Shown here in pieces: positions 387 to 29,334 of a DNA stretch of 43,405 nt. The position numbers and the translations under genes were made by a program. This DNA is from Acanthamoeba lenticulata. Its lineage: Eukaryota > Discosea > Longamoebia > Acanthamoebidae. Where the stretch lies: the NCBI GenBank assembly GCA_002179805.1, contig NAVB01000368.1:1-43405 (forward strand), given 5' to 3'. Position 1 is the first letter of the stretch; every line of letters begins with the position of its first letter. The notes under the pieces were generated by a model. That model saw only the letters and a program-made list of their open reading frames with translations, made no database searches and had not been told where the DNA came from.

Positions 387-3109
387 TTATTTTTGTTTGT
401 GGGCGAAGATTGCTGCTCGCAGTTGGCGCAACTCCACAAAGACGCGCCGCTGGCGTGAAGAAGCCCTCCTCGCACCTTCTTCAAGCAGTGACGCCTCGCC
501 ATCTCCTTCTTCGTCACAGACCGGACCAGCCAACACCGCCCACACGCGCTCTGCCTTGTCAAGGGCGGCCTCGGCTCGTCGCTGGAGCGACTCGGCTTCT
601 ACTCGTCGTCGTCTGCCCTCGTCTGGTTCCTGCCGGCGCAGCTGCTCCAGGGCGTGCAGCCAGGCCTGGGCCAGCTTGGCGTACTGGTCGGCCAGCTCGA
701 AGGAAAAGGCCGGAAAGACCGACTCGAGCACCGCGACGGCCCGCTCGAGCTCGGCCGCGGCCTCGGCGAAGCGGCCCAGCCGCGCGTGGGCCTCGGCCAG
801 CGCGTCGTGTGTGCGGCCGAGCTCGCGGTGGAGCGGGTGGAGATGCGCCGCCCGCAAGCGCAGCGCGTGGGCGAGGCTCTGCGTGGCCCGTTCGAGCGCG
901 GCTGCGTCGGCGTCGCCCTCAGCGCCGTCCAACACGCGGCGCGCCCGGTCGTAAAACTCGCGGGCGAGCTTGACTTCGCGCTGCATCGTACGCAGGTCGA
1001 CCGCGGCATGGCCGCTGCGACCGCAGCGCACGGCAAAGTCGCCCCGCTGGAGCTGGGCCGGGTCGATCCGCAGCTCCTCGGTGCAGCCCTCGGCGCCGCA
1101 CACGAGGTAGTCGTGGCCTACCGTCGCCGCCTCGCCCGGCGCGCTGCAGGCCGGACAGCGACAGTCGAAAAAATACTGCTGCTCAAGGGCCTGCTGCCGC
1201 TGCTCGCGTGCGGGCATGTGTGCCACATGAGGCCCGTAGCAGTTGAACACTTCCGCACCCCGGGCGATGTCCTCGCACGCCCTGCCGTGCGCACGGCTGC
1301 CTTTAGCGCTTGCATTGCTGTTGTTGTTCGAGGAGGCATCACGTACCGGATGGTGAGGACGCGGCCGTCGTAGTTCAGGACCGTGTTGGGCCGGCACGAG
1401 TGGTTGAACAGGCTGCCCGTGGCGTACATGGCCTCGGCCACCCGCCGCTGGACCACCGTCGCCGCCGCCATCTTGTCGACATCATCGCCGTCGGCGTCGT
1501 CGTCAGCGTCGGCGATTTCGTAGATGGCGTAGACGTTGGTGTGGGTCTGGCAGAGGTGGCGGAAGAGCAGGTCGACGTCGAACCAGTCGGCCCATGCCGC
1601 TCGCTTGTCGGCCCAGGCCTGTGTGACGACGCAGTACCGCGCGTACTCGTCGAGCGTCTCCCGCGGCAGCTCGGCTGCGTGTGTCAACAGCGAGTTGATG
1701 TCGTCATAGTCCGCGCGCCACTCCAAAGCGTCCTGGTGCCTCGTCGTTTCAGCTTGCTCTGTTCGTTGGTGGCGCCGCATGAGGACCCGCGCGGCCAGCA
1801 CGAGCAGCGTGGGGGCCACCTCGAAGAAGGCGTCCCCGCACTCGCTGGCGTGGTACGCGGCGGCGGCCTCGTCCCGACACTGCTCCGAGCAATAGCGCGC
1901 CCAGCCGCACTGCCCGCGGCACCTGTAGGTGTCGACAGTTTGTTAGCAAAGGATTTCTCTTGAGGAAGCAGCGTGTGCGTCGGTGGTGAATGAATACGGG
2001 ATGAGCACCGCCTCGCGGGTGAAGCAGTGGTGGCAGTGCGTGCGCTCGAGCGGCCGGAGCAGGACGGCCGCGTAGGCCTCCTCGTGCATCACGGCCTCGC
2101 CGGCCTTGACGTCTCGCGCTGCCACGATGTAGCGCCCGGCCGGGCCGGAGCTTTGCCGCATCTCGATGGCATCCGAGGCGTGCGCGATCCGCGGGTTGGG
2201 CAGCATGCCGAGCCTTGGCCTGGCGCCTTGCTTTGGCTTCTGCTTCTGGTTTGGCTCTTCCTGCTTTTGCTTCTGCTCGGCCTGGGCCACCTCCTGCGCC
2301 AGCTGGGCCCTGACGGGCTTGAGGCTGGCGTCCTGCGCGCGGCCCCCACGATGCATGGCCAAGTCAGATTTGAGGCCAAAAAGGGCTTGACGATTGTCCA
2401 GTGCGGCAACCACCTGTGGCAGCCGGGCCTCGACGAGCTCGAGCGCCCGCCAGAGGTCGACGAGCGCGCGCGACGGCTGGCGCAGGCGCAGGCGACAGTT
2501 GCCCCGCCGCTGGAGCAGCTTGAACAGCTTGTCCTCGGGGTACCCTGCCCTGTTCCAAACGCGGGTGTGGGTGAGTGGTCTGCGAGCCGTTGTGCACGAC
2601 GGGCTTGGACCGCACCGCTGAGCTCGGTCGCAGTCATGGGCGGCCTCGGCGTAGCGCGCCTGCTGGTAGAGCACAGCGGCTCGGTTGGCGTAGACCAGGC
2701 CGTCCAGGCCCGCCTGCTGCGCTGCGGGCGGCGCGCCGCACAGCGACTCTGTGTAGGCGCGTAGAGCACGCTCGAGCAGCTGGGCCTGCCGCTGCTGGAG
2801 GTCGCCTTGGCGCGTCTGGCGCTGGGCCGTGAGCCACTGGCCGTACAGCTCGTCTCCCTCCTGTTTCCGCTGCAGTGCGGCCTGCACGTTGCCGCTCGAG
2901 GTAGAGGCAAGGGAGGAGTAGAGCGTGTCCCTGATCAGCGAAACAGTGTCGCCACTCGCCCAGCTAGAAGGAAAATCTGTTCCCGTGTCGAGGCGAAGAT
3001 GCTCGATTTGTGCATCAGACAGGCGAAAGTGTGAAGAAACACAAGCAAAGGCACGCTTAATGGCCTCTCGATACGGTCGGGCTGGCTCGCGTACCTCCTG
3101 CACCTCCAT
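387..3109 (-). CDS. SMYD4-like TPR / MYND / SET-domain protein
   Basis: Probable SET-domain lysine methyltransferase. Four exons join in frame: 3109-2611, 2544-1998, 1922-1347 and 1296-387, giving about 843 aa, close to metazoan SMYD4. An N-terminal TPR region (ANRAAVLYQQARYAEAAHDC, then KLFKLLQRRGNC...) is followed by the start of SET (GRYIVAARDVKAGEAV). Next comes an inserted MYND zinc finger (HCHHCF ... CGWARYCSEQC). The SET core has GSLFNHSCRPNTV and EVFNCYGPH, and the post-SET cysteines are FFDCRCPAC. C-terminal helical TPR-like repeats follow. The NHSC and NCYGP motifs needed for cofactor binding are present. The start is MEVQEV at 3109; reading further upstream meets only a TTG. It is divergent from the nucleotidase gene, with a 211-bp shared promoter region. 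Confidence 0.9.
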
Positions 3110-3320
3110 CTTGCGCCTAAAGAAAAGGCAAGGAATTGTTTTGCCCAAAGGGAAAAAGCCTTTTCGCTGCGATCTTCATATTCGAGTGCCCATCATTCGA
3201 TCTGTGCGCTCGTACTTTGTCGTGCGCTCGGTCCCAAACACAACTCTTCGCCCTCGTGTGTTTCGGTTCACGTCCTCCATCCCTTCAAGCTTCTCAGCCC
3301 GCTTCAGTTCCAGCTACAAT
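3110..3320. promoter_or_regulatory. Divergent promoter region between SMYD4-like and bisphosphate nucleotidase genes
   Basis: The 211-bp spacer separates two opposite start codons. It holds pyrimidine-rich tracts just before the nucleotidase ATG. No TATA box or named operator could be assigned. Confidence 0.4.
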
Positions 3321-4649
3321 ATGTCTTCCCCCTCGTCAACGTCTTCATCGCTCCCGTTCGCCCAGGAGCGACAGGTCGCTCTGGAAGCCGTCATTGGTGC
3401 CTGCCAGCTTGTGCGCCGCGTTCAGGCCGGCCTGGTCTCGCAGGAGACCCTTGAGAAGCGTGACCGCTCGCCCGTCACGGTGGCCGACTACGCCGCGCAG
3501 GCCCTCATCGTGCACCGCTTGACCCAGCACTTCCCCGCCTATCCCTTCATCGCCGAGGAGTCCAGCGGTGAGCTGCGCCGCGAGGGGAAGGAGGAAATGC
3601 GTGCCAGGCTGCTCGAGCACGTCCACGCCGTCATCCCGGCCATCCAGGATGAGGCCGCCCTGCTCGCCCTCATCGATCGCGGCGGCAGCGGCAAGCAGTC
3701 CCAGCAGGAAGGCGCCGAGCCCAAGTCGCCCTCGGGCCTCTGGTGGACGCTCGACCCCATCGGTCCGTCGTGAGAACCGCTTTGGGGGTTTGGTGTCGGT
3801 TGCTATGCCCATGACTGACTCAATGGCGGGAGGACAGACGGCACGCTCGGGTTCCTCAGGCGCGAGCAGTACGCCATCGCGCTGGCGCTGATGCAGGACA
3901 ACGAGCCCGTGCTTGGCGTGCTCGGCTGCCCTGCCCTGCCCCACAACCTCGCCGACGCCTGTACCGGCCCCGCCGCCCTTTCTCCTCTTTCCCTCAATGC
4001 CCACTTTTTATGCGCTGACGGCTGACGTCGGTGGGTCGCCAGCGTCGCCCGTGGGCTGCGTGCTGGTGGCGGTGAAGGGCCAGGGCTGCTTCATGCGCGA
4101 CGCGTCCGAGGAGGCAACGGCCGAGACTCGCGTGTCGACGTCGCCCGTGACGTCGCCGCAGGAGGCCAACTTCACCGAGAGCGTTGAGGCCTCGCACTCT
4201 TCGCACGATGTGAGCAAGCACATTGCCGAGCGGCTCGGAGTCACCGCCGCCCCGGTGCGCATGGACAGCCAGTGCAAGTACGCCATCGTGGCCCGCGGCG
4301 ACGCGTCCATCTACCTCCGGTTGACAAGGTCCTTGCATGTCCTGTGGCGGTGGCTTAAACCCGTTAAGGACGAGAAAGCGAGATGGACTTACGGTGAAGC
4401 GCGTGCGCGTGTGCGTGATGATGATGCAGTTCGTCGTATGCGGAAAATATTTGGGACCACGCGGCGGGCGCGCTGGTGGTGAAGGAGGCCGGTGGGGAGG
4501 TGACCGACTTGGAGGGCAAGCCGTTGGACTGGTCCCACGGCAAGAAGCTGTCCCACAACAAGGGCGTGGTGGCCACCAACGGCAGGCTGCACGGTGAGGT
4601 CCTTTCGGCCATCCGTGCGGTGCTCCAGAATGACTCTGGCCGGCTCTAA
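3321..4649 (+). CDS. 3'(2'),5'-bisphosphate nucleotidase (SAL1/HAL2/MET22 family)
   Basis: Inositol-monophosphatase-superfamily enzyme expected to hydrolyse 3'-phosphoadenosine 5'-phosphate (PAP) to AMP and phosphate in sulfur assimilation and turnover. Exons 3321-3762, 3838-3960, 4043-4328 and 4430-4649 join to 1071 nt (356 aa), the usual SAL1 length. Visible motifs are DRSPVTVADYAAQALI (substrate region), FIAEES (metal-ligand Glu), and DPI|DGTLGFLR split by intron 1 (the metal-binding DPIDGT loop). The C-terminal WDHAAGALVVKEAGGEVTD carries the last metal-binding Asp. All catalytic ligands are intact. The DPIDGT-GF-R form plus the size favours a PAP phosphatase over plain inositol monophosphatase. 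There is no obvious targeting peptide. Confidence 0.92.
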
Positions 4650-4914
4650 TCTCCGGACAACCTCGTCGTGTTGTTCACGCAACAACCGCTGTTCGGGCTC
4701 GGAAAAACCGCCACCAAAACCGTGTGGAAGGCCTAAAGTGGCCCTTTTGCTCCTTTGTGCCGAGTGGCTGTGATCCGGGGATTGCCTCCTGGTCCCGCGG
4801 GGCTCTCCCTGCAACACCGTGACGCTGGGTGAGAAGTGGAAGTTCCCCCTCTTAGAGCACCTGAGCGAAAGGAAAGCCACAAGCTAGCGGTTTCCGCGGT
4901 GGGGGCGGATTAAG

Positions 4915-7582
4915 ATGGAAGCGCAAGTTTGGGGATGCGACAAGTCTAAACCGCCCCGAAAAGAACGAAAAAAGCTTGCCCTCACGCCAGATTTGGTCTC
5001 CGCTGCGCTGCCTGAGGAAGAACTCGACCAAAATCTTTCGGTTCAGCTCCTTCCCTCTTTTTTCGTTGCATCTGCAATTCAGCAGATCCTTTACAGATCC
5101 CGATTTAAGTCCCCATTTTTCATTTCATTACAATGTGTGGGCTGTGCCCATCGTTCGCAAATCATCGTCGCTACTTTCAGAACGCGTCAAGCGTCGCTGC
5201 AGGGCACGCGACTTTTATTTTTAATCTCCCGCGAACGACACGAGGCGGCACAAGGCTCACGTGCGAACCCGCCCCGTGTTGTGTGGTGTGCGTGCGCAGC
5301 GCGTCGATGCGGTGTTGGCGACGGTCGAACAACCACTCCACCGGCGGCGTGACCGCAAGAGCTTTGATCAGGTCGTGGCTCGACTGGCCCAGCCGCAGCT
5401 GTTGCACCACAACAACAAGCAGCTGCGCGGGCGCGCGCTGGACTGCCTCGAGCAGATCGTCCGCATCTGTCAGCTCGAGAACGACGCCAAGGCGGCCGCC
5501 GCGGCCACTGCCGCCACCATCCTCGACGAGAAGAAGGACGAAAAGGTGGAGCAGGATAACGACGTAGACAAGAATGTCAAGCCCGTTGAAGACGATGAAG
5601 ATGATGATGGAGATGACGACGACAACGATGACGAGGGCGAGACGTATGGACGCGCCGAGGATGGAAGCGGAGGCGGCGATGATGGTGGAGGCGAGGATGA
5701 CGAAGAGGCCGACGACGAAGGTGATGGCCCTGCGGGCACCAGTGGCGAGCCGCTGAGCGACGAGGTCGAGCGGCTGGGCATCTGGTGCACCGCGCCCGGC
5801 GAGATGCCGCGCCTCATCAAGTGCGCGCCCTCCCTCTCCCCGTCTCCACCCTGGCCTCATTTTCTTTTCTCACGTGTTGATGCAATCGGTCGCATAGGGA
5901 GAAGGACTGGGCCAGCACGCCGCTGGGCCCGATCACGCAGTGGCCAAACACCCTCAAGATCGCACTCGCCATCTGCCTCTTCACCCGTTTCCCCTTTGTA
6001 CGCTCGCACACATTCTCAAGGCTCCTCTCGTGTCGGCAACAAAGAATGCCAGGCACTGACTGATGTTCTGCTGTTCGATGGACAGGTGATCTTCTGGGGC
6101 CGAGACTACCGCATGTTGTACAATGACGCCTACAGGCTGATCATGGGCAACAAGCACCCGCGCTACTTTGGCGAGCCCTACGCCGAGTGCTGGCCGACCA
6201 TGTGGGCGGAGCAGAACCTGGACGAGGTGGTCAAGTCGTCCCGGGCCAACTGGTTCGAGGACCAATTCTCGCCGATCGACCGCCACGGCTACATCGAGGA
6301 GGTCTACTTCACGTCGTCCTACAGCCCGCTCTTCATGGACGACGGCTCCGTGGGCGGCCTCTTTACCATTGTCTCCGAGACCACAAACCGCGTCATCGGC
6401 GAGCGCCAGCTCCGGGCCATCCGCGACTTGGCCGCGTCGGGCGCCGGCGCCAGCACGGCTCGGGACGCCGTTCGCATCGCCGCCGAGGTGATCGCCACCA
6501 CTGGCAAGTACGTGATGCTCTTCCTTGGCCATAGTCCTGCCTGGTCTTGGTCCTGACCCAGGCGGGCTGGGACAGGTGGGACATCTCGTTCGCCAATATC
6601 TACCTGCTGGACGAGCGCGCCCGGCGGGCGATCTTGGCTGAGACCGTGGGCCTCGAGAAGGGCTCGCTCCTATGCCCGCAGATGGTCACCCTCTTCCGCA
6701 TGAAGCAATCGTACGCCTCATTGTCGTTGTCGTCATCATCTTTGCTCGCCTCCTCGCTCACGCTGGCGTTGCGCCGCTCTGCAGGGACAGCGAGGACAGC
6801 CGGAGCGAGGACGACCGCGAGGAGGAACAAGGCGGCTTCTGGATCTCGTTCTTCAACGAGGTCGTGCAGAAGAAGTCGTCTCAGTTCCTCGACCTCGTCC
6901 AGTTTGGCAGCGAAGTCCCGCCCTGCAGCGCCTGGAACGAGAGCCCGAGGTCGTGCGTGATTCTGCCGATGATGTCTCGAACGGACGCCGAGAAGGTGGT
7001 GGGCATCCTCGTGGCCGGTGTCAACCCTCGCCACGAGCTCGACGACAATTACAAGTTCGTGGCCTCACAACATACCAGGAATGTGTGGAATGCTGATTGT
7101 TTTATTTGCAGGATTTTCTTCAACCTGTTCTCGGGCCATGTGGCCTCGATCATCACGACGGCGACGGCCCGTGAGGAAGAACGCAAGCGGGCCGAGGCGC
7201 TGGCCGAGCTTGATCGGGCCAAGACGATCTTCTTCTCCAACATCTCGCATGAGTTCCGCACGCCGCTCACCCTCATGCTGGGCCCGCTCGAGGACCTCCT
7301 CGACCAGGCCGAACTGCATTCCGAGAAGGAACAGCTGACGCTGATCCACCGAAACGTCTTGCGGCTGTACAAGCTGGTCAACTCGCTGCTCGACTTCTCG
7401 CGCCTCGAGGCCGGCCGCGCCCGCGCGGTCTACGAGCCCGTGGACCTGAGCACCTTTACACAGGACCTGGCCTCCATCTTCCGCTCGGCCACCGAACGCG
7501 CCGGACTCGAGCTCCGCGTCGAGTGCCAGGAGCTCGAGCAGCCGGTCTACGTAGACAAGGACATGTGGGAGAAGATCGTGCT

Positions 7583-7613
<31 letters not shown>

Positions 7614-10600
7614 ATGCACGGCCATATCCGCATTGCCCTCGGTCCGGTGGCCGAGGGCCAGGTGGAGCTGGTGGTGGAGGACACGGGGATCGGAATCCCG
7701 ACAGAGGAGCTGCCCATGCTGGGCAAGCGGTTCCACCGGGTGCAAACGCCCGGCGGGCGGTCGCACGAGGGGACGGGGATCGGGCTGGCGATGGTGTTTG
7801 AGCTGGTGCGGCTGCACGGGGGCACGGTCTCGGTCGAGAGCCAGCTCGGCCACGGTACCTAAATCCACCCATCATGCATCATCCGTCGTAGTCACGCCTA
7901 TGGCGCTAGAGTGATCTCATGTGCTCGTCTCGTGCAGGCGCAACGTTCCGGGTTCGAATCCCGTTCGGGATGGAGCACTTGCCCTCGAGTCAGATCAAGC
8001 GCATCGTGCGGACGATCCCGCCCTCGTTCGCGGCTGGCGCCGTCGGACCTCCAGCGACTACCGCAATGGTGGCGCCGACGAGGCAGCCCCCGCCCGCGGG
8101 CGCCGTTTCGTTCACGCCAGTAGGCACGCCCGGAACGGACCTCACGCTGCCCGAAGACCCTTCACACTCGTTTGCCGACGCGCGGCACTACTCCAAGACG
8201 GCCTCGTGGTGGCTTCCATCGTTGCCCATCGCAAGCTCGTCCTCGTCGGGCGTCTCGCAGCACTCGGCCTCATCGGCCTCGGGCTCGTCCACTATGTCGG
8301 CAGCGTCCTCGGCCTCGTCATCTTCATCGTCCTCGCCTGTCCGGTCCTACACGACGTCGCCGACGACGGGCTCACCGGAGATGCCCTCGTCGCCCCGCTC
8401 GCGCACGTCGTCCTCCTTTGCCGTCCTTTCGTCCTCCTCCGACCGGCAGTCCAAGCGGCGCCACAAGAAGCGGGCCAAGGACAACAAGGCGCGGATCCTG
8501 CTGGCCGACGACAACTTCGACATGCGCGAGTACGTGGCGCGCCTTCTCAGCTCCAAGTACGAGGTCATCAGCGTCTCCAACGGTATGTGCCGGGCCTTTC
8601 AGCAGCAATTGCATTCTTGGCATTCTTCAAAGTGCCAACGTCACCGTGGTGCAGGTTTGGAGGCGCTGAGCATGCTGCGATCGAGCCCCAAGCTGGTGGA
8701 CCTGGTGCTGACGGACGTGATGATGCCGTTCCTCGACGGGTTCGGCCTGCTCAAGGAGATCCGCGCACGCGAGGAGACGCGCACGCTGCCCGTCATCATG
8801 CTCTCGGCGCGCGCCGGCGAGGAGGCCAGCACAGAGGGCCTGGCCGAGGGAGCGGACGACTATCTGATCAAGCCCTTCACAGCGCGCGAGCTCCTCTCCC
8901 GCGTGGCCTCTCACCTCAAGATGGCCCGCATGCGCATGGAGGCCGCCAACACGGAACATGCCCTCCGCATGGAGGTCCACGACGTGCGCGAAAGGCTGGA
9001 GCGCATCCTGGCTTCCATTCAGGACGCCGTCGTCTCGCTCGACTCGCGCCTCCGCTACGTTTTTGTCAACTCCAACGCCGCCGTCCTGCTCGGCGCCAAG
9101 AAAGAGGGTATGCCTTTTATTTCTATTTCTTTCTTTTTATTATGTATTTATGTATTCATTTTCTTATCTCGGCATGTCGATACAGACATGATTGGCCACA
9201 ACGTGTGGCGATTTATGGTCGACACCGAGGACCGACTCGTGCGGCGCAACCTCGAGCGCGCCGTGAAGGAGCGCATCGACCTCGTGTTCGAGTACTACTA
9301 CGCGGCCCGCGATCGCTGGTACGAGAGCCGCATCTACCCGGGCTCCGATGGCGGAGCCACGATCTATACGATCGACGTGACGGCACGCAAGAAGTCCGAG
9401 CAGCGGCTGTCGCTGCTTGCCCAGGTCGGACGCTTGATGGCCGTGAGCGTCGATAGCCACTTGCCGACCCTGCTGGCCGAAGCGCAGAACATCATCGCCG
9501 GCTCGCTGGTCGCCGACTGGAGCGTGCTGGACCTCGTCGGGCCCAGCGGGGCCCTCCAGCGCATCGCCACGCCCCACGCCCCGGTCCACCTGTGGACGCT
9601 CCACAAGATCTCGCCCAGCGGCAGCAGCGAAGCTGAGAGCAAAGGTGGCGACAGCGGGGAGGGGACCGTCGTCGTGGCGCCGCGCAAGAACTTCGTCCGC
9701 GAGGTCGAGCTGTGCAATGGCGAGGTCGTCGGGATCGAGTGTGCCCTGCCCAAGAGCGACAACTTCGTGCTGTGCCTCCTGCAGGGCCACGGCAAGGTCT
9801 TTGGCACGTGGGTATTCACGCGCCAGTCCTTCCTCAACAGCCATTACATGGTACGATCCCCGTCAATCATGCTTGCCTAGAAAAGAATCTTTTTAATAAA
9901 TAAATAAATAAATCTTATTTATTTGTGGCGCAGGACGAGGACCGGGCGGTGTGCGAGGAACTGGCGCGACGAGCTGGAATGGCGATCGACAATATCCGGC
10001 TTTACCGCGCGGCCGAAAGCGCCAACCTGGCCAAGGACCACTTCCTCGCGGCGCTGTCGCACGAGCTGCGCACGCCGCTCACGCCCGCGCTCCTCCTCTC
10101 CGAGGCCCTCCTCGGTACTTTCTGCCACAACATCGATCATTCGGGTCCTTTGAGAGCTCACCATCTGCTGGCCTTGGGCGTGACAGGCGAGGGACTGCCA
10201 CCGCATGTGGAAGAGAACGTGCGGATGATCCGCGAGTCGGTGGAGCTTGAGGTGCAGCTCATCGACGACCTGCTCGACCTCACCAAGATCTCCCGGTACG
10301 TTCTCTAGCGGCTCAGCGTCGCGCATGGCTGGGCGTTGGAGGCTGACGCCGCAAGCGTGTATCATTTGACGCAGAAATAAGCTCAAGCTGCACCTGCAAG
10401 AGGTGAGCGTGCACGAGCTGGTGAATCGCACGCTCCAGATTGTGGCGCACGAGATTGGCGTCAAGAAGCTGCGCGTTTCTATGAACCTCGGCGCCACCTT
10501 TGACCGGCTCACGGGCGATCCGGCCCGTCTCCAGCAAGTGCTCTGGAACATCATCAAGGTATTTATTTTTCCTTTTATTATTGTTTATTTCAAATCATTT

Positions 10601-21119: not shown

Positions 21120-22595
21120 AAGCAGGAGCATCAGAAACACTCCTCCAGTGGGCTGCAAAGGGGTTTCAGGTCCCCTTGAACAGCTGCCCACCACTGATCA
21201 AGCGGCACAACTTCAAGCTCAACAACCTCCAATGGATGTTCATCTCCAAGGAGGTCGCCTGGTTTCTGGTAAATCAGGGCTGCTGAGGATGATCATGGAC
21301 CTCTGCTTCCTCAACAGCTTTGTCCAATCACCCAAGTTCAAGTATGACAGGCTGTGAGAGCTGGCAGCCCTAGCCCAACCAGGTGACTAGGTGGTGACAA
21401 TTGACTTAAAGGACAGCTTTTACCATGTTGAAGTGCACCTTGAGAGGTTGGGCTGGACCATCAACTGGGACAAGTTGTCCTTGGAGCCAGCCCAAAACCA
21501 AGAGTTGTCAATGTCTTCTGTGTGATTGCAAGCAAGACCAGCTGGTCCAGCCTGGTCACGCTGACCAAGGACACCACCACCGACCTCTTCAAGTGATGTG
21601 ATGGCCTTCACCTGTGGGATGGCAATATGGCCTTGGAGAGGCCAACCGACATAGTGATCAACACCAACATGTCCCTCTCTGGCTGGGGAGTGATTACATC
21701 ATGCAAGACCCTTATGTTGGTTGGCTGGTGGCAACTTTCTCATTGGCACATTAATGAACTTGAACTTTGAGCTGTGTGGAACACCTGCAAGACCTTTGGT
21801 GATCAGCTCAAAGATCAGGCCATCATGTTTCAGTTGGACAATGTCATGGTGGTTGCCTATTTGAACAAGATAGGTAGCTGCAACCCTCATTTCAACTGAG
21901 TGATGGCAAAAATCCTGAATTGGGCCAAAGCCAAGAATGTGCAAGTGCAGGCAGTTCACCTGCCAGGCTCAGCAAACTCCAGCACCAATAGAGTAACTCA
22001 ACTTCACCACCACCATGAGTTTCACAACCAATTTGTGATGGCCAAGAACATGTTGCTTCCCTGGTTCAACAGCCACTTCATTAAGCGCAGCACCAAGGCC
22101 ACCAATGCACTCCTCCAGTGCTGGCACAAAGACAACAACTGGGCCACACCTCCCATCACACTCATTCCACACCTTCTTCACCTCATGCAGTACCAGCACA
22201 CACACCACCACACTGGCCCATCCCAGGCCAACTCCCAAATTGGGCCCCTCTGGGGATGGGTGGGGTGGTTGTGGCCAACAACAATTAGCTGCCAAAGCCA
22301 CTCAAGAACATGCAGTGGATGTGGGCAGCCTGTCAAATCTCTGGGCTACACACACCACTGGCTGGTCAGACAGGGCTGTCCAGGCTTTATCATCAGCACT
22401 AATGCTGTCCACATGGCGCCAGTACAAAGCAAACCTGCAGTGCTTCTGAGATCAGGGTCTCAGAAGCTGTGCTTCCCTATTTTGACCAAGTCAACTGAGC
22501 TTCCAGTGACATTGTGCTGGTCCTGGTTGTAGGCTACAAGAATGACTGCTTTGGTGAAGGTAACACTGTAACCCTCCACTGCACTTCACACCTGA
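21120..22595 (+). mobile_element. Decayed DIRS/Ngaro-like retroelement fragment (RT, RNase H, start of tyrosine recombinase)
   Basis: Broken plus-strand coding remnants read in order. An RT N-terminus has NFKLNNLQWMFISKEVAW. RT core fragments are LRMIMDLCFLNSFV and VVTIDLKDSFYHVEV. An RNase H segment has HWHINELEL, QLDNVMVVAYLNK and VHLPGSANSSTN. Near 22390 a segment LSSALMLSTWRQYKANLQCF resembles the N-terminal SAM-like domain of tyrosine recombinases. The order RT-RNase H-recombinase is typical of DIRS-group retroelements. Many stops interrupt it, mostly TGA where CGA would fit, plus one TAG in place of TGG in the RT. It lies directly upstream of the broken NHL gene and ends where the inverted-repeat element begins, so the younger element probably inserted into it. 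The exact left boundary is not visible. Confidence 0.75.
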
Positions 22596-22622
22596 ACATG
22601 GGCTTATTTGAAATGAGAGGTC
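22596..22622 (+). repeat. Left terminal inverted repeat
   Basis: Reads ACATGGGCTTATTTGAAATG then AGAGGTC. Its reverse complement matches 28732-28758 at 26 of 27 positions. Weaker similarity continues inward, where GTGAAATAAT on the left corresponds to GCGAAATAAA read inward from the right end. A short palindrome, CATTTCAAATG in the right copy, lies inside the repeat. Confidence 0.85.
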
Positions 22623-22952
22623 AAAAATGACTGGTGAAATAATATGGAATCAAAATTAACAATAAGGCAATAAACCTCCATTTGATTTATATAAAAGCAT
22701 TTTAACCACATTAAACTGATAATACAAGCATTTTTACGTTAGTGAAAATAATATTACATGCTTATTATGCATATTAAGTACAAAAATAAAATTACATAAA
22801 ATAAATTAAATGCATTTAGAAAAATAAAATAAAACGAGATTTATTATAAATATTTTAAATTAGGTAAGTTGTTTGATTGAAGATATAAAAACCAAAAAAG
22901 GATAAATTAGAGTTTATCAGAAAAGGTGGATGACGCGAATTGAATGTTTATT

Positions 22953-25320
22953 TCAAAAAGAAGAAAATTTAAAAATCGTGGGGGCCACAGGTAAAAAACG
23001 AGACCGCGTACGTGTACGTGGTGCTGACGCTGATATATTAACCAGACTGCGTATGCGTACGCGGTACCCAAATTCGGCTTGTTCAGTGAGTTGTAAAGAT
23101 GATAAAATAGACGCACCCAATTCATACATCTTCAGACCATTTTTTTCTAAATATTTCAAGACACACCATAAAGAAGGCCTGATGCGATTGTCAAGATCAA
23201 GGGCGACATCAGGATGAAGAAGAGTAGAATAAGAAACAAAGTCAGTGTCACCATCCATTCTTTGCCAAATGTCGTCGTCTCCTTTTTGCAGCCAGTTCAG
23301 ATAGATACGGGTGTGAGTGGTATGCTGGACAACACCAAGCCAAATCTCATCAGATTCACCAGCAACAGCAACAATAGCGCCTTTATCAGGTTTTTCCTTG
23401 GTGAGGTCTATTGTGGCATCTCCCGTCAAAACAAGGCTGGCTTCATATGGGGGATTAATTGAGTCCAACTGGGAAAAAGAAGCAGTGGTAAGGTCAGTAA
23501 TATAATTATAAACCCATTGAAATGGCTGACGAAGTAGAATCTCAGCTGAAGGATTATTGAATTTTGAGACCACGTCATCAAATGATTGTTTATAAATTGC
23601 AGAGTTGTTGAGCATGCTAAGAGCTGTGTATGTATCTTTAAGCATAGCAGCATCCACTTGAATGGGATCTTTAGGCATGGAGTAGTGGTTGGTGTAGTCA
23701 TCAAAAACTGAACAGGTCCCATCCATTTAGAATTAGAGGAATGATAATCTTTAGTATATAATTTGGCACAGTTATCTTCCCAGCAAAATGAAAATACATG
23801 AGGTCTGGATGTGCCTGAAACAGCTTGGATATAAGGATCAAGCCAAGATTTAAAATCCCATGATTCAACCAAATAGAGTACACTTGGTTGTTGTAGCATA
23901 GATGAATACCATTTATCTTTGACTCCTTTTGCAAAATCATCAACACTAAACACTCTTTTGTTACGTGCCATACCAATACAGAAAGTTGAAAACATTTGGT
24001 CAATATCTTCATGTGTATGGCCCACTGGTAGAAATGACATTGTGATATTTTTGAACACATTATTATGAACCAGCCAATGACAGTAAGCCAGCATGTATTT
24101 GTTTTTGTTTTCTTGACTGCAGTTGTCCATTTGTAAAAACAAAGTATGTGGTAGGCAGTCAGTGACAATTGGAGAAATGGGTAGATAAATGATGATGAAA
24201 AAGAGACAGCGCAAAATCAGGACCACATCCAAACTGTCCATGATGTAAATAAATTGAGCGTTTTTGTGTACCATGATTGATGATTCCGTAAACAGCGAGT
24301 TTATAAAGGTGCAGATCCTTCCATGCACTAGGTATCTTACAAAACTGGGATATGCTCAGAGGATGACTGGTGATGTAGGTGATCTCACGGATAGTAGCAT
24401 TATATTTTTTGTAAAGGTGTTCCTTTGTCATAATCATAGGCATGTAGATCTTGTAGGAATTAGGCGCATGGCAGCCATACTGTCAATGTTAATTAAGTCT
24501 GTAACGTATATAAGATGAGAATTACAAACCACCATCAAGCGCTATAGTATGACTACACGTACCGCGTACATGTACGTGGGCCACATCAGTATGTAAACAT
24601 TCAAAAATGTTGACAATATTTAGTAGAAGGGATCGCAAACGCATATGTGAAAAAGCTGTCAACAGACCACGTACGTGTATGTGGCAGCATAGCTTAAGAT
24701 AACCTACCATGTCGGTGTAGTCTTTGATCCAGGCATTCGCATAAAATGCAGCAGTAGACGTCATACGGCCGCAATGGAAACTTACCTCACTAGCGTAGTT
24801 ACACATTTTATTTTCAGATATACCATAGGCATTCATGAAGGCTGTTCTGCAAACAAGCGATGTGCAAGTTAAAATTAATCCATAAGATAAAACAAACAAG
24901 AACATGTACTCGGCGTTCAATGAAGAAATATCTCGTCGTGGCACTTTGATGCTCCATAATAATTCTTAACCATTGGCGTGAGGCGGCTTGGTTCATATTC
25001 TTCCATTTGAGACGACATGCCCAAATTATGGAATTATCGAATTGTCGTAAGCATTTTTGTAAGCAACAAGATTTCAACAATATCTTATCTATATCTAAAG
25101 AATTAACATGCTGAAGAGCCTTGCTTGAAGATACAGCGGATTGATTTCAGTGAGTGTTGGTGTAACTAAGCTCAGTGATATTATCAGCATTAACCAGAGC
25201 TGCATCCAGAATACTTCGTGGTATTGAAAGACTTTGCAATGGTTGAGGATCTTGTGGCCTTAGCTTGTAATTCCACCAAATAGCTGAATCGATAAAACTG
25301 TTGACGTGTAATCCGACCAA
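22953..25320 (-). pseudogene. Transposase-like gene of the inverted-repeat element (DUF7869-type), frame-broken
   Basis: Minus-strand exons carry, in order: a helical N-terminal segment (SFIDSAIWWNYKLRPQDPQ, then KCLRQFDNSIIWACRLKW); a VCRTAFMNAYGIS motif; a KLAVYGIINHGTQKRSIYLH stretch; then LFLQMDNCSQENKN and FLPVGHTHEDIDQMFS; and a C-terminal region (GESDEIWLGVVQHTT). The LDNC..ENKN plus GHTHEDIDQ pair is, from memory, the hallmark of a repeat-associated eukaryotic family (DUF7869), plausibly an RNase H-fold DDE enzyme with the D of DNC as a catalytic acid. That fold assignment is inference. The frame shifts near 24155, near 23725 and near 24930. One in-frame TGA lies at 25149-25147, where CGA would fit. 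Four palindrome copies fall in its presumed introns or downstream region. Confidence 0.62.
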
Positions 25321-27315
25321 ATTTAATGTTAGTTAGTGAACCACGTACGTGTACGCGGTACGTTAAGGATGCATTGCTAAACAGTGAGCACATTGAACAT
25401 GCTCTCGTGTACGCGTACACGGTACTTTAATTTGGTAAAACAGTTATTAAAATATATTAATAATTATGGATATATATTTCGTCTTCAGTTTTTCTTATTT
25501 CGATTAAAATGATATGTAATCGATTGGGTAGAGATAATTCTGCGAACCTGCATGTGATCGCTTGTTCCATTGCAAGGGTTAAACAACAATGACAGCAGCT
25601 TATGGTTCTGAAAGCGTCAATGAAAAGTCGACCAATCAACTGCCGAGATTTTAACAAACTCTACACAAGAATGCGTCTACAAATACTGCGTCTACAAAAA
25701 TTTGTGATTGGATGCCTCAGAAGTATTTGAAAAAAACTAGGGCCTTTGCTCATTTTTCTTATCCACGCCGAACCACACACACCTCGCCTTCACCCATGGA
25801 GCCAGAGCCAGACACGACACAGTCACCCAGTGGAATTCCGTCAATGGTGACTGAATCCTGGAACATCAAGACGTTGACGGGGTGGATGGTCAAACAACCA
25901 GCGTGGAAAAACGTGAAAGTCAGCGACCTGCGGAAAAAAAAGCTGGGAGAGCTACAAGAAATTTGCATAGTACGGAATCTACCCCTATCTTGCATTTTAA
26001 TAATTTTAAATCTAATAATAAAATATGTATTTTACAGGAGCACTACCACAAGCGCGCTCAAGAGGTATGTTTATCTCCACTGTGTACGCGTATGCGGTCA
26101 GTTCAGAAGACCGCGTACGCGTACGTGCTTTAGTTTTATAACCTTTATTATACTGCGTACGCATATGTGGTCAGTATGATTTGCATATACCGATGTTTTG
26201 ATAACTTTATTGAATTGTCCATATTTATGTTTATATCATTAAAATCATAAATGAGTATTTTAAAATGATTTTGATAATTAATTTGGCCACATACACATAC
26301 GTGATCCATTACTTATGATAATGCAACTCTATAACACAAAGAAGGGACAGCCATTTTGGTGCAAAATTCTCAGCCTGACCTACCTGGTGGAGAATCTGTG
26401 ACCCAGGAAGCCAAGGTATAATATTAGTCAATTTTTCATATGAGTACCTGCTGACTTATCTACAGGACAAGTCACCTTCACCAAGTGAGAATGAATGAGA
26501 AGAACCAGTTGAGGAGAATCCATTGGTATGTAGTGAACAAGATATTCCATTCCCTGCAGTTAAAACTTGTACTGCGTACGTGTATGCGGTCTGGTATTCT
26601 GATCATTTGTGGTTAATCAGACGTCAGTGGAGCTGGAAGAAATCATGAAGAAGAACCGTCTTGCACGTTATGAGGAGTTGATGAGAGAGCACATTAAAGC
26701 AAATGCTTTTGCTGTGGACATCCACCAGTTGATGAAAGCCGGCAATCTTCGTCCTGTCACAGCTCGTGGTAAATGAACTCTTAGCGCCGCAATGAAGGAA
26801 TTAGGAGTCATCGTCATGGAGCGTTTGCTTGTTCAAGAGTTACCTCCTTCGGAATGCGTTCTGAACAACGGCAAGCCTGAATATGTTGTCATCGATGGAA
26901 ATCACCACATTGCCGCTGCACGCTTGCTTTTTCTGGAGAAGCATTTTCTGTGGCTATGTGATCTTTTAGATGTACAGCTCTTCAATTATTTTGATTTGCT
27001 GTTTTTTGCTGATTTTGCTCCATACTTTATGCAGGACAAGGTGACTTCTGAGGAGGTCAAGTTGATTGCTTGGGCTAGGAACTACATGCATGATGAGGGT
27101 GCTGTTCATTGTGATGAGTGGGAAGACTTCTGGAATCTCAGGGATGATCTGAAGGACCCTTTGAATTGGATGACTGTTGAAAAGGGCAAAAAGATTGACT
27201 GGCCAACCTTGCTGTCAAAAATCGTATGTATTCTTATGCTTTGTCTTTATCAAGGAGCACGTACGTGTACGCAATGACATTGACATATGTTTATGTCTGC
27301 GTACGCATATGCGGT
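23003..27315. repeat. Dispersed 20-bp palindrome family (13 copies)
   Basis: Copies start at 23003, 23046, 24561, 24666, 25340, 25404, 26079, 26110, 26152, 26286, 26571, 27256 and 27296; each is 20 bp. The inferred ancestor ACCGCGTACGCGTACGCGGT is identical to its own reverse complement. Examples are ACCGCGTACGTGTACGTGGT (23003) and ACTGCGTACGCATATGTGGT (26152). Most differences from the ancestor are C-to-T or G-to-A changes inside CpG. Copies tend to be paired, 30-105 bp apart. As far as exons can be drawn, every copy lies in an intron or between the two genes. None was seen outside the inverted-repeat element. Confidence 0.85.
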
Positions 27316-28444
27316 ATATTATAGCCTGGTGTCAATTGCTACCACAAGGCGGAGCGTGATCGCGTGTACAACTGTTTACGTAACTACATGGGCGTTCTCA
27401 ACAAGTTCGAATCAGAATGGGAAGGCACAGGCCGGTTGCTCGAAAGCAAGTATCTTGAGAGTCTTGAACCAATGCTGATCAACCCTCTTTTTCTTCATGG
27501 AGTAAAAAGTGAAGACAACGTTGTCCTTGCAGCCTTGAAATACCTCTATCAACAAGACAAGCCCAAAATCACCAAAGCCCGTATGTTGCTCAGGTGCTCA
27601 AACATCTCTATTTGCTAACTTTTTGTTTAATTGTAGGTTTCTGTGATCTCATTGACATGATGGATAAATGGATTAGCTTCCTCTGTAAAGTCTCGACTGA
27701 TTGCCATAAGCTTTCATCATCTGCTTTCAACATTGTTAAGCACCTTGTGGCCGATGGATCATGGGTAATTATAAAGATTGGAGCGATTAAAAAGTGCAAT
27801 CCACACTTCGTTTATCATCATCCACATGTCAACCAGATCTGTACAATTTTTTACCCAATCAATCATGTAATATTGTCTTATTAACTTTTTCTTTTTAAGC
27901 GTCCCTGTTCTACCAGTCACTTCTTCTCACCTACTCGCAAGGCAAGTCTTCATGGATGGTTTTGGATTGGTCACCTCTTCAAGCCACACTGTTCCTGGCA
28001 GTGGAAAGAATCAGGTTCAGCTATTCAATGCTGATATCTTCGTCCAGGGCCAGTGATGCTGAGGTGAGGATGTCATTTTTACAGCCCAGCTTCAAAAAAT
28101 TGCCTCACTCAGCGCCTGGTCCTGCCTCCCGCAAGCGCGGTCGATCACCATCCTGTTCTCCTTCGCCTTTGCTTTCTCCTTCGCTTGACGAGTTTTCTGA
28201 CATCTCTGACCATGAAAAAAAACGTTGCCGGTCCCTGTCTCTGGAAAGATCGCCTTGAGCTAAGAAGCATCATCAACGATCAAAGAGTCGCCGTTCCTGT
28301 AGTAGGAGCCCGAGCTCATCACACCGGTCACGGTCTGCAGTGAGCACTCTGTATTCATCTTCCACATCCAGCACGTCCAGCTCACATGTGCAGAAGCGAG
28401 GAAAAATCACTGCAGATAGTTCCTTTGTGAATTTGCTTGTTTAG
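25796..28444 (+). pseudogene. ParB/sulfiredoxin-like protein with SR-rich tail, carried by the inverted-repeat element
   Basis: The start is MEPEPDTTQSPSG. Exons include 25796 to about 25974, a 27-nt microexon (26038-26064, EHYHKRAQE), about 26340-26415, 26466-26525, about 26623-26960, about 27030-27220, about 27350-27590, 27637-27763 and about 27900-28444. The core YVVIDGNHHIAAARLLFLEK, preceded by VIVMERLLVQELPP, matches the ParB/sulfiredoxin-fold pattern (V.DG.HR.AAA). A helical C-terminal half follows. The tail is Ser/Arg/Pro-rich (RKRGRSPSCSPSPLLSPS; KSRRSCSRSPSSSHRSRS) and would suit a nuclear protein. Three in-frame TGA codons (26496, 26774, 28256) interrupt otherwise open exons. Seven palindrome copies lie in its introns and two upstream. 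The function is unknown; DNA binding or nuclease activity is suggested only by the fold. Confidence 0.6.
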
Positions 28445-28731
28445 CAGCATTTGTATCACCTGAACAAGTGCATAAAAAATAAAAAAAAGATTTCCTTGAT
28501 TTTTCTTTTTTCATTATTCTAATCGCCCATTTTTAAACTTGCAAACAGTTTTTTGTTGTATAAAATGAAAGGTCAGAAGCATTCTTGCTGTAAATTATGT
28601 TTTTTGTAAATTTTCTTACGATTTTTTTATTTAATAAAGTCAAAAATGAGGATTGATTTTTTTAAATAAAATTGATTTTGATGTGCTAAAAACGACTTTG
28701 TTAAAATAAAATTTATTTCGCACAATGACTG

Positions 28732-28758
28732 GACCTCTCATTTCAAATGAGCCCATGT
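28732..28758 (-). repeat. Right terminal inverted repeat
   Basis: Inverted copy of the repeat at 22596-22622; the only mismatch is GAGCCC against AAGCCC. Just outside it the sequence reads TTTGATTGG. No clear target-site duplication longer than the shared CATG was found. Confidence 0.85.
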
Positions 28759-29334
28759 TTTGATTGGAAAATGTGGCTGACAAAAGAAACACTAATATTA
28801 GGGCCACACACATATAAGAATTGGGTATGTTTGGTGAAGTTCAAGTGGGGGTAAAGCTGAATGTTGATCCACAAGAGGTATATAAGTTGTTTATCACCTT
28901 CTTCATTGTACTTCAACTTATTAATGGCACAACATCAGCAAAACCTTCACTTTAAAAATACAAAATCAAAAATGGCCATATTGAAACCCATCCCACTTTC
29001 CCAGGAGAAATGTTGGGTCAGTGGCTCACCATTCCCAATACTTACCAAGCTGCTGTGAGACTCCATAGTAACACATGGCAACAAAAACACCAGCCAGATA
29101 CACTAACAAGCCAAGCCCAAGGCAACACACAAGAAAAAACAAACGGAACACCACAGCTTCTTGCAAGAGCAGCTCCTCACGCGCTCGTGCGCGAAAAAAC
29201 CAGAAAAACTGAAGAGGGCGCAGTCATGCGAAGTCCTACGACTGATGTAATTGGTGGATCCACTCGTGATGGTGGAGGACGCCATTCATACGTTCTACAA
29301 TTAGGACACGAGAGCCATTTTGGCGACGCCTCCG
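28759..29334. other. Gene-free flank right of the inverted-repeat element
   Basis: Moderately AT-rich sequence with no coding region I can recognise. Short open stretches (around 28861-29058 and 29010-29210) have no family signature. It may be the continuation of the retroelement interrupted at 22596, but no recombinase motif was found to prove that. The last 100 bp is the 3' flank of the GH5 gene. Confidence 0.4.

What the first reader, a model, noticed from the sequence alone, without database searches (positions are those of the whole stretch)
22596..28758. Possible undescribed transposon class: transposase-like gene, ParB-like gene and dispersed palindromes between inverted repeats
Seen: matching 27-bp inverted ends, two divergent multi-exon genes and 13 palindromes confined between the ends. 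Known: ParB-family proteins act by binding short palindromic sites (parS). Inference: the element's ParB/sulfiredoxin-like protein, or its transposase, may recognise the palindromes, giving a self-tagging element (for partition, silencing or transposition-complex assembly). I know of no described eukaryotic transposon with this combination.
Basis: partly seen in the sequence, partly recalled or inferred. Interest (0 to 1): 0.92.

Follow-up and report, generated by a model that had tools for sequence, protein, structure and literature searches.

The report
Amoeba transposon with ParB-like palindrome system
A repeated jumping element in an Acanthamoeba-like genome carries a gene for a predicted cut-and-paste enzyme, a second gene for a likely ParB-like DNA-binding protein, and up to 18 copies of a short palindrome that sits almost only in this element and outside the exons mapped, which the protein likely binds to tag the element and would perhaps shield it from host silencing.

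Summary
In detail: 28-bp inverted ends (27/28), two divergent multi-exon genes, 13 CpG-rich palindromes between them. The host looks like Acanthamoeba. The family shows 14 left and 13 right ends at 98-100% identity plus older relatives; the window copy is decayed and shortened. Flanking 4-mers pair left and right ends far above chance, giving a 4-bp target-site duplication. The minus-strand gene is a DUF7869 protein whose predicted fold is a DDE/RNase H transposase. The plus-strand gene (13 exons, 893 aa, open in copy C1103) has a likely ParB-like domain; a methyltransferase-like second half is suspected but failed profile tests. Of 85 genome sites within three mismatches of the 20-bp palindrome, 83 lie in element copies; in C1103 all 12 inside the ParB-like gene are in introns. 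A diverged relative keeps one in the same intron. "Undescribed class" is not supported: a Sola1 transposon of Ectocarpus carries a ParB-methyltransferase gene opposite its transposase, with algal parallels. New here are the element-private palindromes as candidate binding sites, resembling the noncoding motifs of Arabidopsis VANC elements. Binding and anti-silencing are inferred.

The parts
22595..28759 (.). whole element (window copy, 6165 bp, shortened and decayed)
   Evidence: matches other contigs of the main family at about 92-99%
22595..22622 (+). left terminal inverted repeat AACATGGGC...
   Evidence: 14 further left-end hits, 13 at 98-99% and C581 at 84% over 62 bp
28732..28759 (-). 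right terminal inverted repeat
   Evidence: 12 further right ends at 98% and two diverged ones at 74%
23120..24479 (-). transposase exon 3 (DUF7869 core); window copy lacks about 275 bp at 24333/24334 that hold the first predicted catalytic Asp
   Evidence: DUF7869 E 4.7e-42 in the window, 2.1e-49 in the 546-aa open exon of C1636; mapping; 3' end approximate
24480..24708 (-). transposase intron 2 with two palindromes
   Evidence: splice joins LVCRTA...YTDM|YGCHVP in frame in C1636
24709..24858 (-). transposase exon 2
24911..25160 (-). transposase exon 1 (CC..C region) by reading; 5' end not determined
   Evidence: open frame in C1636; 5' limit approximate
25796..25969 (+). ParB-like gene exon 1
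26038..26064 (+). ParB-like gene exon 2
26338..26415 (+). ParB-like gene exon 3
26466..26525 (+). ParB-like gene exon 4
26621..26971 (+). ParB-like gene exon 5: NLRPVT...LSAAM.ELGVI...YVVIDGNHH.A.ARLL (one TGA in the window copy)
   Evidence: hhalign of this exon (other copies) to ParB proteins
27035..27223 (+). ParB-like gene exon 6
27325..27580 (+). ParB-like gene exon 7
27637..27764 (+). ParB-like gene exon 8
   Evidence: exons 9 and 10 and part of 11 are missing at 27772/27773
27773..27840 (+). rest of exon 11
   Evidence: 68 of 174 nt mapped
27900..28071 (+). rest of exon 12
   Evidence: 172 of 332 nt mapped
28085..28444 (+). exon 13, Ser/Arg-rich tail
23002..23023 (.). palindrome 1, beyond the transposase stop
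23045..23066 (.). palindrome 2, beyond the transposase stop
24560..24581 (.). palindrome 3, transposase intron 2
24665..24686 (.). palindrome 4, transposase intron 2
25339..25360 (.). palindrome 5, between the divergent genes
25403..25424 (.). palindrome 6, between the divergent genes
26078..26099 (.). palindrome 7, ParB-gene intron 2
26109..26130 (.). palindrome 8, ParB-gene intron 2
26151..26172 (.). palindrome 9, ParB-gene intron 2
26285..26306 (.). palindrome 10, ParB-gene intron 2
26570..26591 (.). palindrome 11, ParB-gene intron 4; a counterpart is kept in the diverged relative C1764
27255..27276 (.). palindrome 12, ParB-gene intron 6
27295..27316 (.). palindrome 13, ParB-gene intron 6

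Best explanation
This is a decayed copy of a roughly 7.4-kb DNA transposon family whose DUF7869 protein is predicted to be a DDE cut-and-paste transposase and whose second, divergently transcribed gene encodes a likely ParB-like protein that likely binds the element's own noncoding palindromes. Shown: matching 28-bp ends, a 4-bp target-site duplication by end pairing, a multi-copy family, both genes together in three copies (C318, C686, C1636), palindromes almost confined to the element and absent from the exons mapped. Inferred: the ParB-like protein, probably as a dimer, recognises the 20-bp palindrome and coats the element from its introns, its shared promoter region and its flanks. Inferred further: this keeps the element's genes open against host CpG methylation, or marks its DNA if the suspected methyltransferase-like half is active, as proposed for algal ParB-methyltransferase transposon proteins and as shown for the unrelated VANC proteins of Arabidopsis.
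Against: No binding data. No Pfam ParB hit at E up to 10; no homologue of the second protein found in a collection of 5.8 billion sequences by word-based search; the ParB exon model failed (pLDDT 44); the ParB piece scored no better than shuffles against phage ParB-methyltransferases, and the single ParB proteins, also in the set, were picked from tblastn lists of E up to 10, so those figures are selected. The methyltransferase half found no support. CpG decay is the same in palindromes (128 of 607 cells) and elsewhere in the element (466 of 1964; Fisher p 0.19), so nothing shows that palindromes are shielded from or singled out for methylation. In A. castellanii DNA transposons as a whole show no methylation enrichment, though some inserts are highly methylated (PMC12344493 passages). 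C1103, with the open ParB-like gene, has lost the DUF7869 core. The remnant C330 shows no palindrome, though it keeps only part of exon 5 and the right end. The palindromes begin about 400 bp inside the left end. The phasing test has 9 spacings and was post hoc.
Confidence: 0.5

Rival explanations
1. The palindromes are operator or enhancer sites for a host or element transcription or splicing factor; the ParB-like gene does something else.
For: Two palindromes lie between the divergent genes and most others in introns, as regulatory sites do.
Against: A host factor's sites would be expected in host genes too, but 83 of 85 sites are in the element; two sites lie beyond the transposase stop.
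Confidence: 0.2
2. The transposase binds the palindromes (internal accessory sites for transposition-complex assembly).
For: They are confined to the element; other transposases use subterminal repeats (recalled).
Against: They are spread over the whole element, the outermost about 400 bp from the left end and about 710 bp from the right end of C1103. Short internally deleted copies, which could tell, were not searched for as such.
Confidence: 0.12
3. The second protein is a ParB-methyltransferase that modifies the palindromes (N6-adenine or N4-cytosine) rather than only binding them.
For: Precedent in Ectocarpus Sola1-1_Ec32 (PMC12477816 passages); my reading by eye of FDIIVCDLWPD ... TVLDWSPLRAAPFLAAERIG as degenerate motifs IV and I.
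Against: No Pfam, NCBIfam, PHROG or profile support; the usual catalytic DPPY/W and FxGxG motifs (recalled) are not present as such, so activity is doubtful.
Confidence: 0.2
4. The palindromes are neutral: mini-insertions or relics homogenised by chance with no binding protein.
For: CpG sites in palindromes decay like the rest.
Against: 18 sites share 20 bp but nothing beside it, all outside the exons; one is kept in a relative with 49% protein identity.
Confidence: 0.13

Closest known systems
Sola1-1_Ec32 of Ectocarpus and the green and red algal transposons with ParB-methyltransferase proteins (PMC12477816, passages; its refs Iyer 2011 and Petroll 2025 not seen)
   Same: DNA transposon with an accessory gene on the strand opposite the transposase; ParB-like domain; proposed to bind and modify its own element
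   Different: Here about 7.4 kb not 21.5 kb; 893 aa not 1104 aa; methyltransferase half not detectable by profiles; dispersed palindromes found here, none mentioned in the passages read; superfamily identity not tested
VANDAL/VANC anti-silencing transposons of Arabidopsis (PMC5735166 passages; PMC10398659 abstract)
   Same: Element-encoded second protein plus short element-specific motifs in introns, intergenic and terminal noncoding regions
   Different: VANC motifs form tandem repeats; binding and loss of methylation are shown there, inferred here; no sequence comparison was made; the transposase is of another type (Mutator-like, recalled)
DUF7869 (PF25273) proteins of Acanthamoeba castellanii and marine animals
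   Same: Same transposase family, 47-49% identical to two A. castellanii Neff proteins over about 72% of the query
   Different: Whether those genes lie in elements with a ParB-like gene was not testable
Bacterial ParB-parS
   Same: Likely ParB-like domain, palindromic sites grouped on the DNA
   Different: No ParA-like gene noted, no significant sequence match, eukaryotic intron-rich gene, site unlike parS (recalled)

Membership tests
Cut-and-paste DDE DNA transposon | Terminal inverted repeats shared by copies | tested here: met
Cut-and-paste DDE DNA transposon | Target-site duplication of fixed length | tested here: met
   4 bp by pairing of left and right ends across contigs; absent at the two copies held end to end, C318 and C686
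Cut-and-paste DDE DNA transposon | RNase H-like transposase with acidic triad | tested here: met
   predicted fold only; D212 nearly invariant, D252 and D254 invariant, E251 nearly so in 26 aligned proteins; D129 in the DG strand by my count; activity not tested
DUF7869 (PF25273) | Profile above curated cut-off | tested here: met
   168 bits against 26
Sola superfamily | 4-bp target-site duplication | tested here: met
   the Sola2 value is from PMC3627910 passages
Sola superfamily | Transposase homologous to Sola transposases | not testable with these tools
   no Sola sequence at hand; Academ not excluded
ParB/sulfiredoxin superfamily | Significant profile match | tested here: not met
   no Pfam ParB match at E up to 10
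ParB/sulfiredoxin superfamily | Profile-profile similarity over the GNHR core | tested here: inconclusive
   64-77% against selected ParB proteins, none against phage ParB-methyltransferases
ParB/sulfiredoxin superfamily | ParB fold | tested here: inconclusive
   model pLDDT 44
Transposon ParB-methyltransferase accessory proteins | N4C/N6A methyltransferase domain | tested here: not met
Transposon ParB-methyltransferase accessory proteins | Gene opposite the transposase inside the same ends | tested here: met
   C318 and C686 with both ends, C1636 with the right end only
VANC-type anti-silencing system | Element-specific motifs in noncoding regions | tested here: met
VANC-type anti-silencing system | Protein binds motifs and lowers methylation | not testable with these tools
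   needs binding and methylome data

The most novel reading that the evidence does not exclude
A eukaryotic transposon runs its own ParB/parS-like system: its ParB-like protein loads on up to 18 element-private, helically phased palindromes placed in introns and intergenic DNA, spreads over the element, and holds it open against host CpG methylation, the first such transposon accessory protein with its DNA sites in view.
Probability: 0.3. Interest if true: 0.86.

Novelty: new variant of a known kind. Interest (0 to 1): 0.62.

Why it matters
Transposon-borne ParB-methyltransferase proteins are in print as a possible new class of accessory proteins that bind and modify their own element (PMC12477816), and I saw no target site named in the passages read. 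This family offers a precise candidate site, ACCGCGTACGCGTACGCGGT, with up to 18 copies per element and almost none elsewhere, in a relative of an amoeba that methylates CpG in young transposable elements, retrotransposons above all (PMC12344493 passages). That turns a conjecture into a binding assay and a methylome comparison, and would give a protist counterpart to the VANC systems of plants.

Tried and rejected
Loose alternating pattern CGYRYRCGYRYRCG: 1166 genome matches against 1153 for the reversed control, useless. Homologues of the second protein: none in two protein searches. tblastn of the ParB/helical half against phages: nothing; of the second half: 4 records of 3 or fewer phages at E 0.3-0.5, none a methyltransferase by its label. 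tblastn of the ParB core: 2 plasmid and 7 phage records at E 0.4 to 10, of which one plasmid record and two records of one phage are annotated ParB; chance cannot be excluded. Methyltransferase half against 22 phage ParB-methyltransferases: below several of 30 shuffles. ParB structure: failed. Foldseek alone gave no match under E 0.001. Extra methylation decay at palindromes: not seen. Viral or giant-virus insertion: considered; the nine frames scanned with Pfam gave DUF7869 only above cut-off, no wider search for viral genes was made, and the ends, TSD and DUF7869 fit a DNA transposon. Palindrome as a genome-wide repeat: rejected. Sola versus Academ: not settled. Not answered because the tool was busy: whether the lone DUF7869 fragment on C1032 sits in a related element, and a genome scan for C>T/G>A-decayed palindromes.

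Rows dropped: C686 was left out of the alignment counts (inverted internal part), though its palindromes are in the 83; C581 and C330 were left out of the pairing test and C1764 was not entered (diverged ends). Contig stubs shorter than the distance to the first palindrome were not among the 15 copy stretches. One search counts 124 sites with up to 8 mismatches in those stretches; one in C1103 (position 4567, 8 mismatches, in an exon) and one out of register in C957 are chance or offset rows. The spectrum uses columns with four or more copies, that three or more. The model used 25 of the 120 listed (of 312) homologues. Two of the 85 palindrome sites were not located.
Full report
What was checked. 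The window is contig C318 of a 48.5-Mb, 1825-contig assembly. A profilin of that genome matches solved profilin II best (1f2k, E 3e-73; that this entry is from Acanthamoeba castellanii is recalled), and the nearest named relatives of the transposase are two A. castellanii Neff proteins, so the host is Acanthamoeba or close to it. The 28-bp ends (27 of 28) are at 22595-22622 and 28732-28759. The element is AT-rich (about 40% G+C) in a host at about 60%.

Family. The left 106 bp give 15 hits and the right 120 bp give 15 hits in the genome, the window included. 14 left ends are 98-100% identical and one is 84%; 13 right ends are 98-100% and two are 74%. Most contigs break inside the element, as repeats do in fragmented assemblies, so only C318 and C686 are held end to end. 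Relatives carry three segments that the window copy lacks: about 275 bp at element position 1740, about 925 bp at 5178 and about 270 bp at 5477; the intact length is therefore about 7.4 to 7.6 kb by sum, without my having built one. C686 has an inverted internal part and is 7639 bp. C1103 has lost the DUF7869 core but has an open second gene.

Target site. The outermost conserved bases are AACATGGGC and GCCCATGTT in the main family. The 4 bases outside 8 of 14 left ends recur outside a right end of another contig (13 right ends tested), 9 pairs in all; in 196 shifted comparisons the mean was 0.81 and the maximum 5. At 3 bases (3 pairs, null mean 3.5) and 5 bases (1 pair, null mean 0.2) there was no clear excess. 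This is the mark of a 4-bp target-site duplication seen on insertions split over two contigs. C318 (CCTG/TTGA) and C686 (AGTT/CTTG) have none, so they may be recombinant or misjoined.

Second gene. In C1103 thirteen exons with GT donors and AG acceptors join into an open frame of 893 codons. Exon 5 reads VDI...NLRPVT...LTAAMNELGVI...EYVVIDGNHRVATARLL. No Pfam family matches significantly; the best is GmrSD_N at E 0.22 on this stretch; among PHROGs an unknown family reaches E 0.02 and a ParB-like one E 0.1. hhalign gave 71%, 64% and 77% against a Streptomyces ParB, a phage ParB and a seven-protein set, 0.6% against the transposase set; these targets were chosen from weak tblastn lists. Against 22 phage ParB-methyltransferases neither half beat shuffles, and the exon model failed. 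So 'ParB-like' is likely, not proven; a methyltransferase half is my reading by eye plus precedent. The gene is a real protein gene: against relative C330 codon positions differ 25/11/44 over 64 codons, against C1764 37/28/58 over 85.

Palindromes. Across copies the sites converge on GACCGCGTACGCGTACGCGGTC, and one of 124 sites (in C1388) has it exactly. In C1103 the information sits in 20 bp, with flanks near random. Of 85 genome sites within 3 mismatches of the inner 20-mer, 83 are in the copies held; the 50 sites that the search listed with positions are all in element copies, and the reversed control pattern has 18 matches. All 18 sites of C1103 are outside the ParB-like exons, and by coordinates no window palindrome falls in the mapped transposase exons; inside the ParB-like gene 12 of 12 are in introns that make up 1162 of 3844 bases, a chance of about 6e-7 by simple multiplication. 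They occupy introns 2, 4, 6, 8, 10 and 12 and none of the odd ones. The nine neighbouring spacings up to 134 bp fit 10.5-bp turns (mean cosine 0.62, p about 0.004, post hoc). The diverged relative C1764 keeps a palindrome just upstream of exon 5, where intron 4 has its own, with 6 of 20 bases changed, all C>T or G>A; the remnant C330 shows none, but keeps only part of exon 5 and the right end.

Decay. Of 785 variable columns among 14 copy stretches 464 are C/T or G/A changes at CpG, as CpG methylation would leave. A. castellanii methylates CpG; young LINE and LTR copies are methylated most, DNA transposons as a whole show no such enrichment though some inserts are highly methylated (PMC12344493, passages). 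Palindromic CpG sites decayed in 128 of 607 cells and others in 466 of 1964 (p 0.19), so the palindromes are neither spared nor singled out. The window copy is among the most decayed.

Mechanism. The layout of transposase, second protein and element-private motifs in introns, intergenic and terminal noncoding DNA is that of VANDAL/VANC elements, where the protein binds the motifs and methylation is lost (PMC5735166, passages). The ParB-like domain and gene orientation match the Ectocarpus Sola1 element, whose ParB-methyltransferase protein is proposed to bind and modify its own transposon (PMC12477816, passages). I therefore commit to self-binding by the ParB-like protein for anti-silencing or marking. 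Shown: anatomy, privacy and placement of sites. Inferred: binding, spreading, effect on methylation.

Novelty. Transposon plus ParB-type accessory gene is known; a member in Amoebozoa with dispersed palindromes as candidate sites is, in what I could search, not described. Few subscription papers are in that library, and the two papers cited for algae could not be read.

Noticed in passing
L033 (C1103) 2352-6195: Palindromes occur in every even-numbered intron (2 to 12) of the ParB-like gene and in none of the odd ones, and (window copy) in intron 2 but not intron 1 of the transposase gene; unexplained.
   Followed up: partly
L032 (C1388:9100-16880): Two element copies lie head to head, joined inside the element; an inverted dimer or an assembly artefact.
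   Followed up: no
window 22590-28765 and C686: The two copies held end to end have no matching flanks, unlike the split copies, so both may be recombinants or misjoins.
   Followed up: partly
G000:C1032:32066-32191: A lone DUF7869 fragment with a stop, possibly another family; the fetch failed because the tool was busy.
   Followed up: no
L036 (C330) 7504-7844 and L035 (C1764) 304-1240: Old relatives of the element: ParB-like exon remnants near a 74% identical right end, 59% and 49% protein identity.
   Followed up: yes
window 21900-22532: AT-rich frame before the left end that by eye resembles a retroelement RNase H region (HLPGSANSSTNRVTQL); no Pfam match, so the element may sit beside an older repeat.
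   Followed up: partly
window 6642-9877: Sensor histidine kinase pieces with PAS and receiver domains (Pfam HisKA, HATPase_c, Response_reg); by eye similar frames recur up to about 19.2 kb.
   Followed up: no
L033 626-684: A 59-bp piece of the element is inverted at the deletion junction of the transposase gene in C1103.
   Followed up: no
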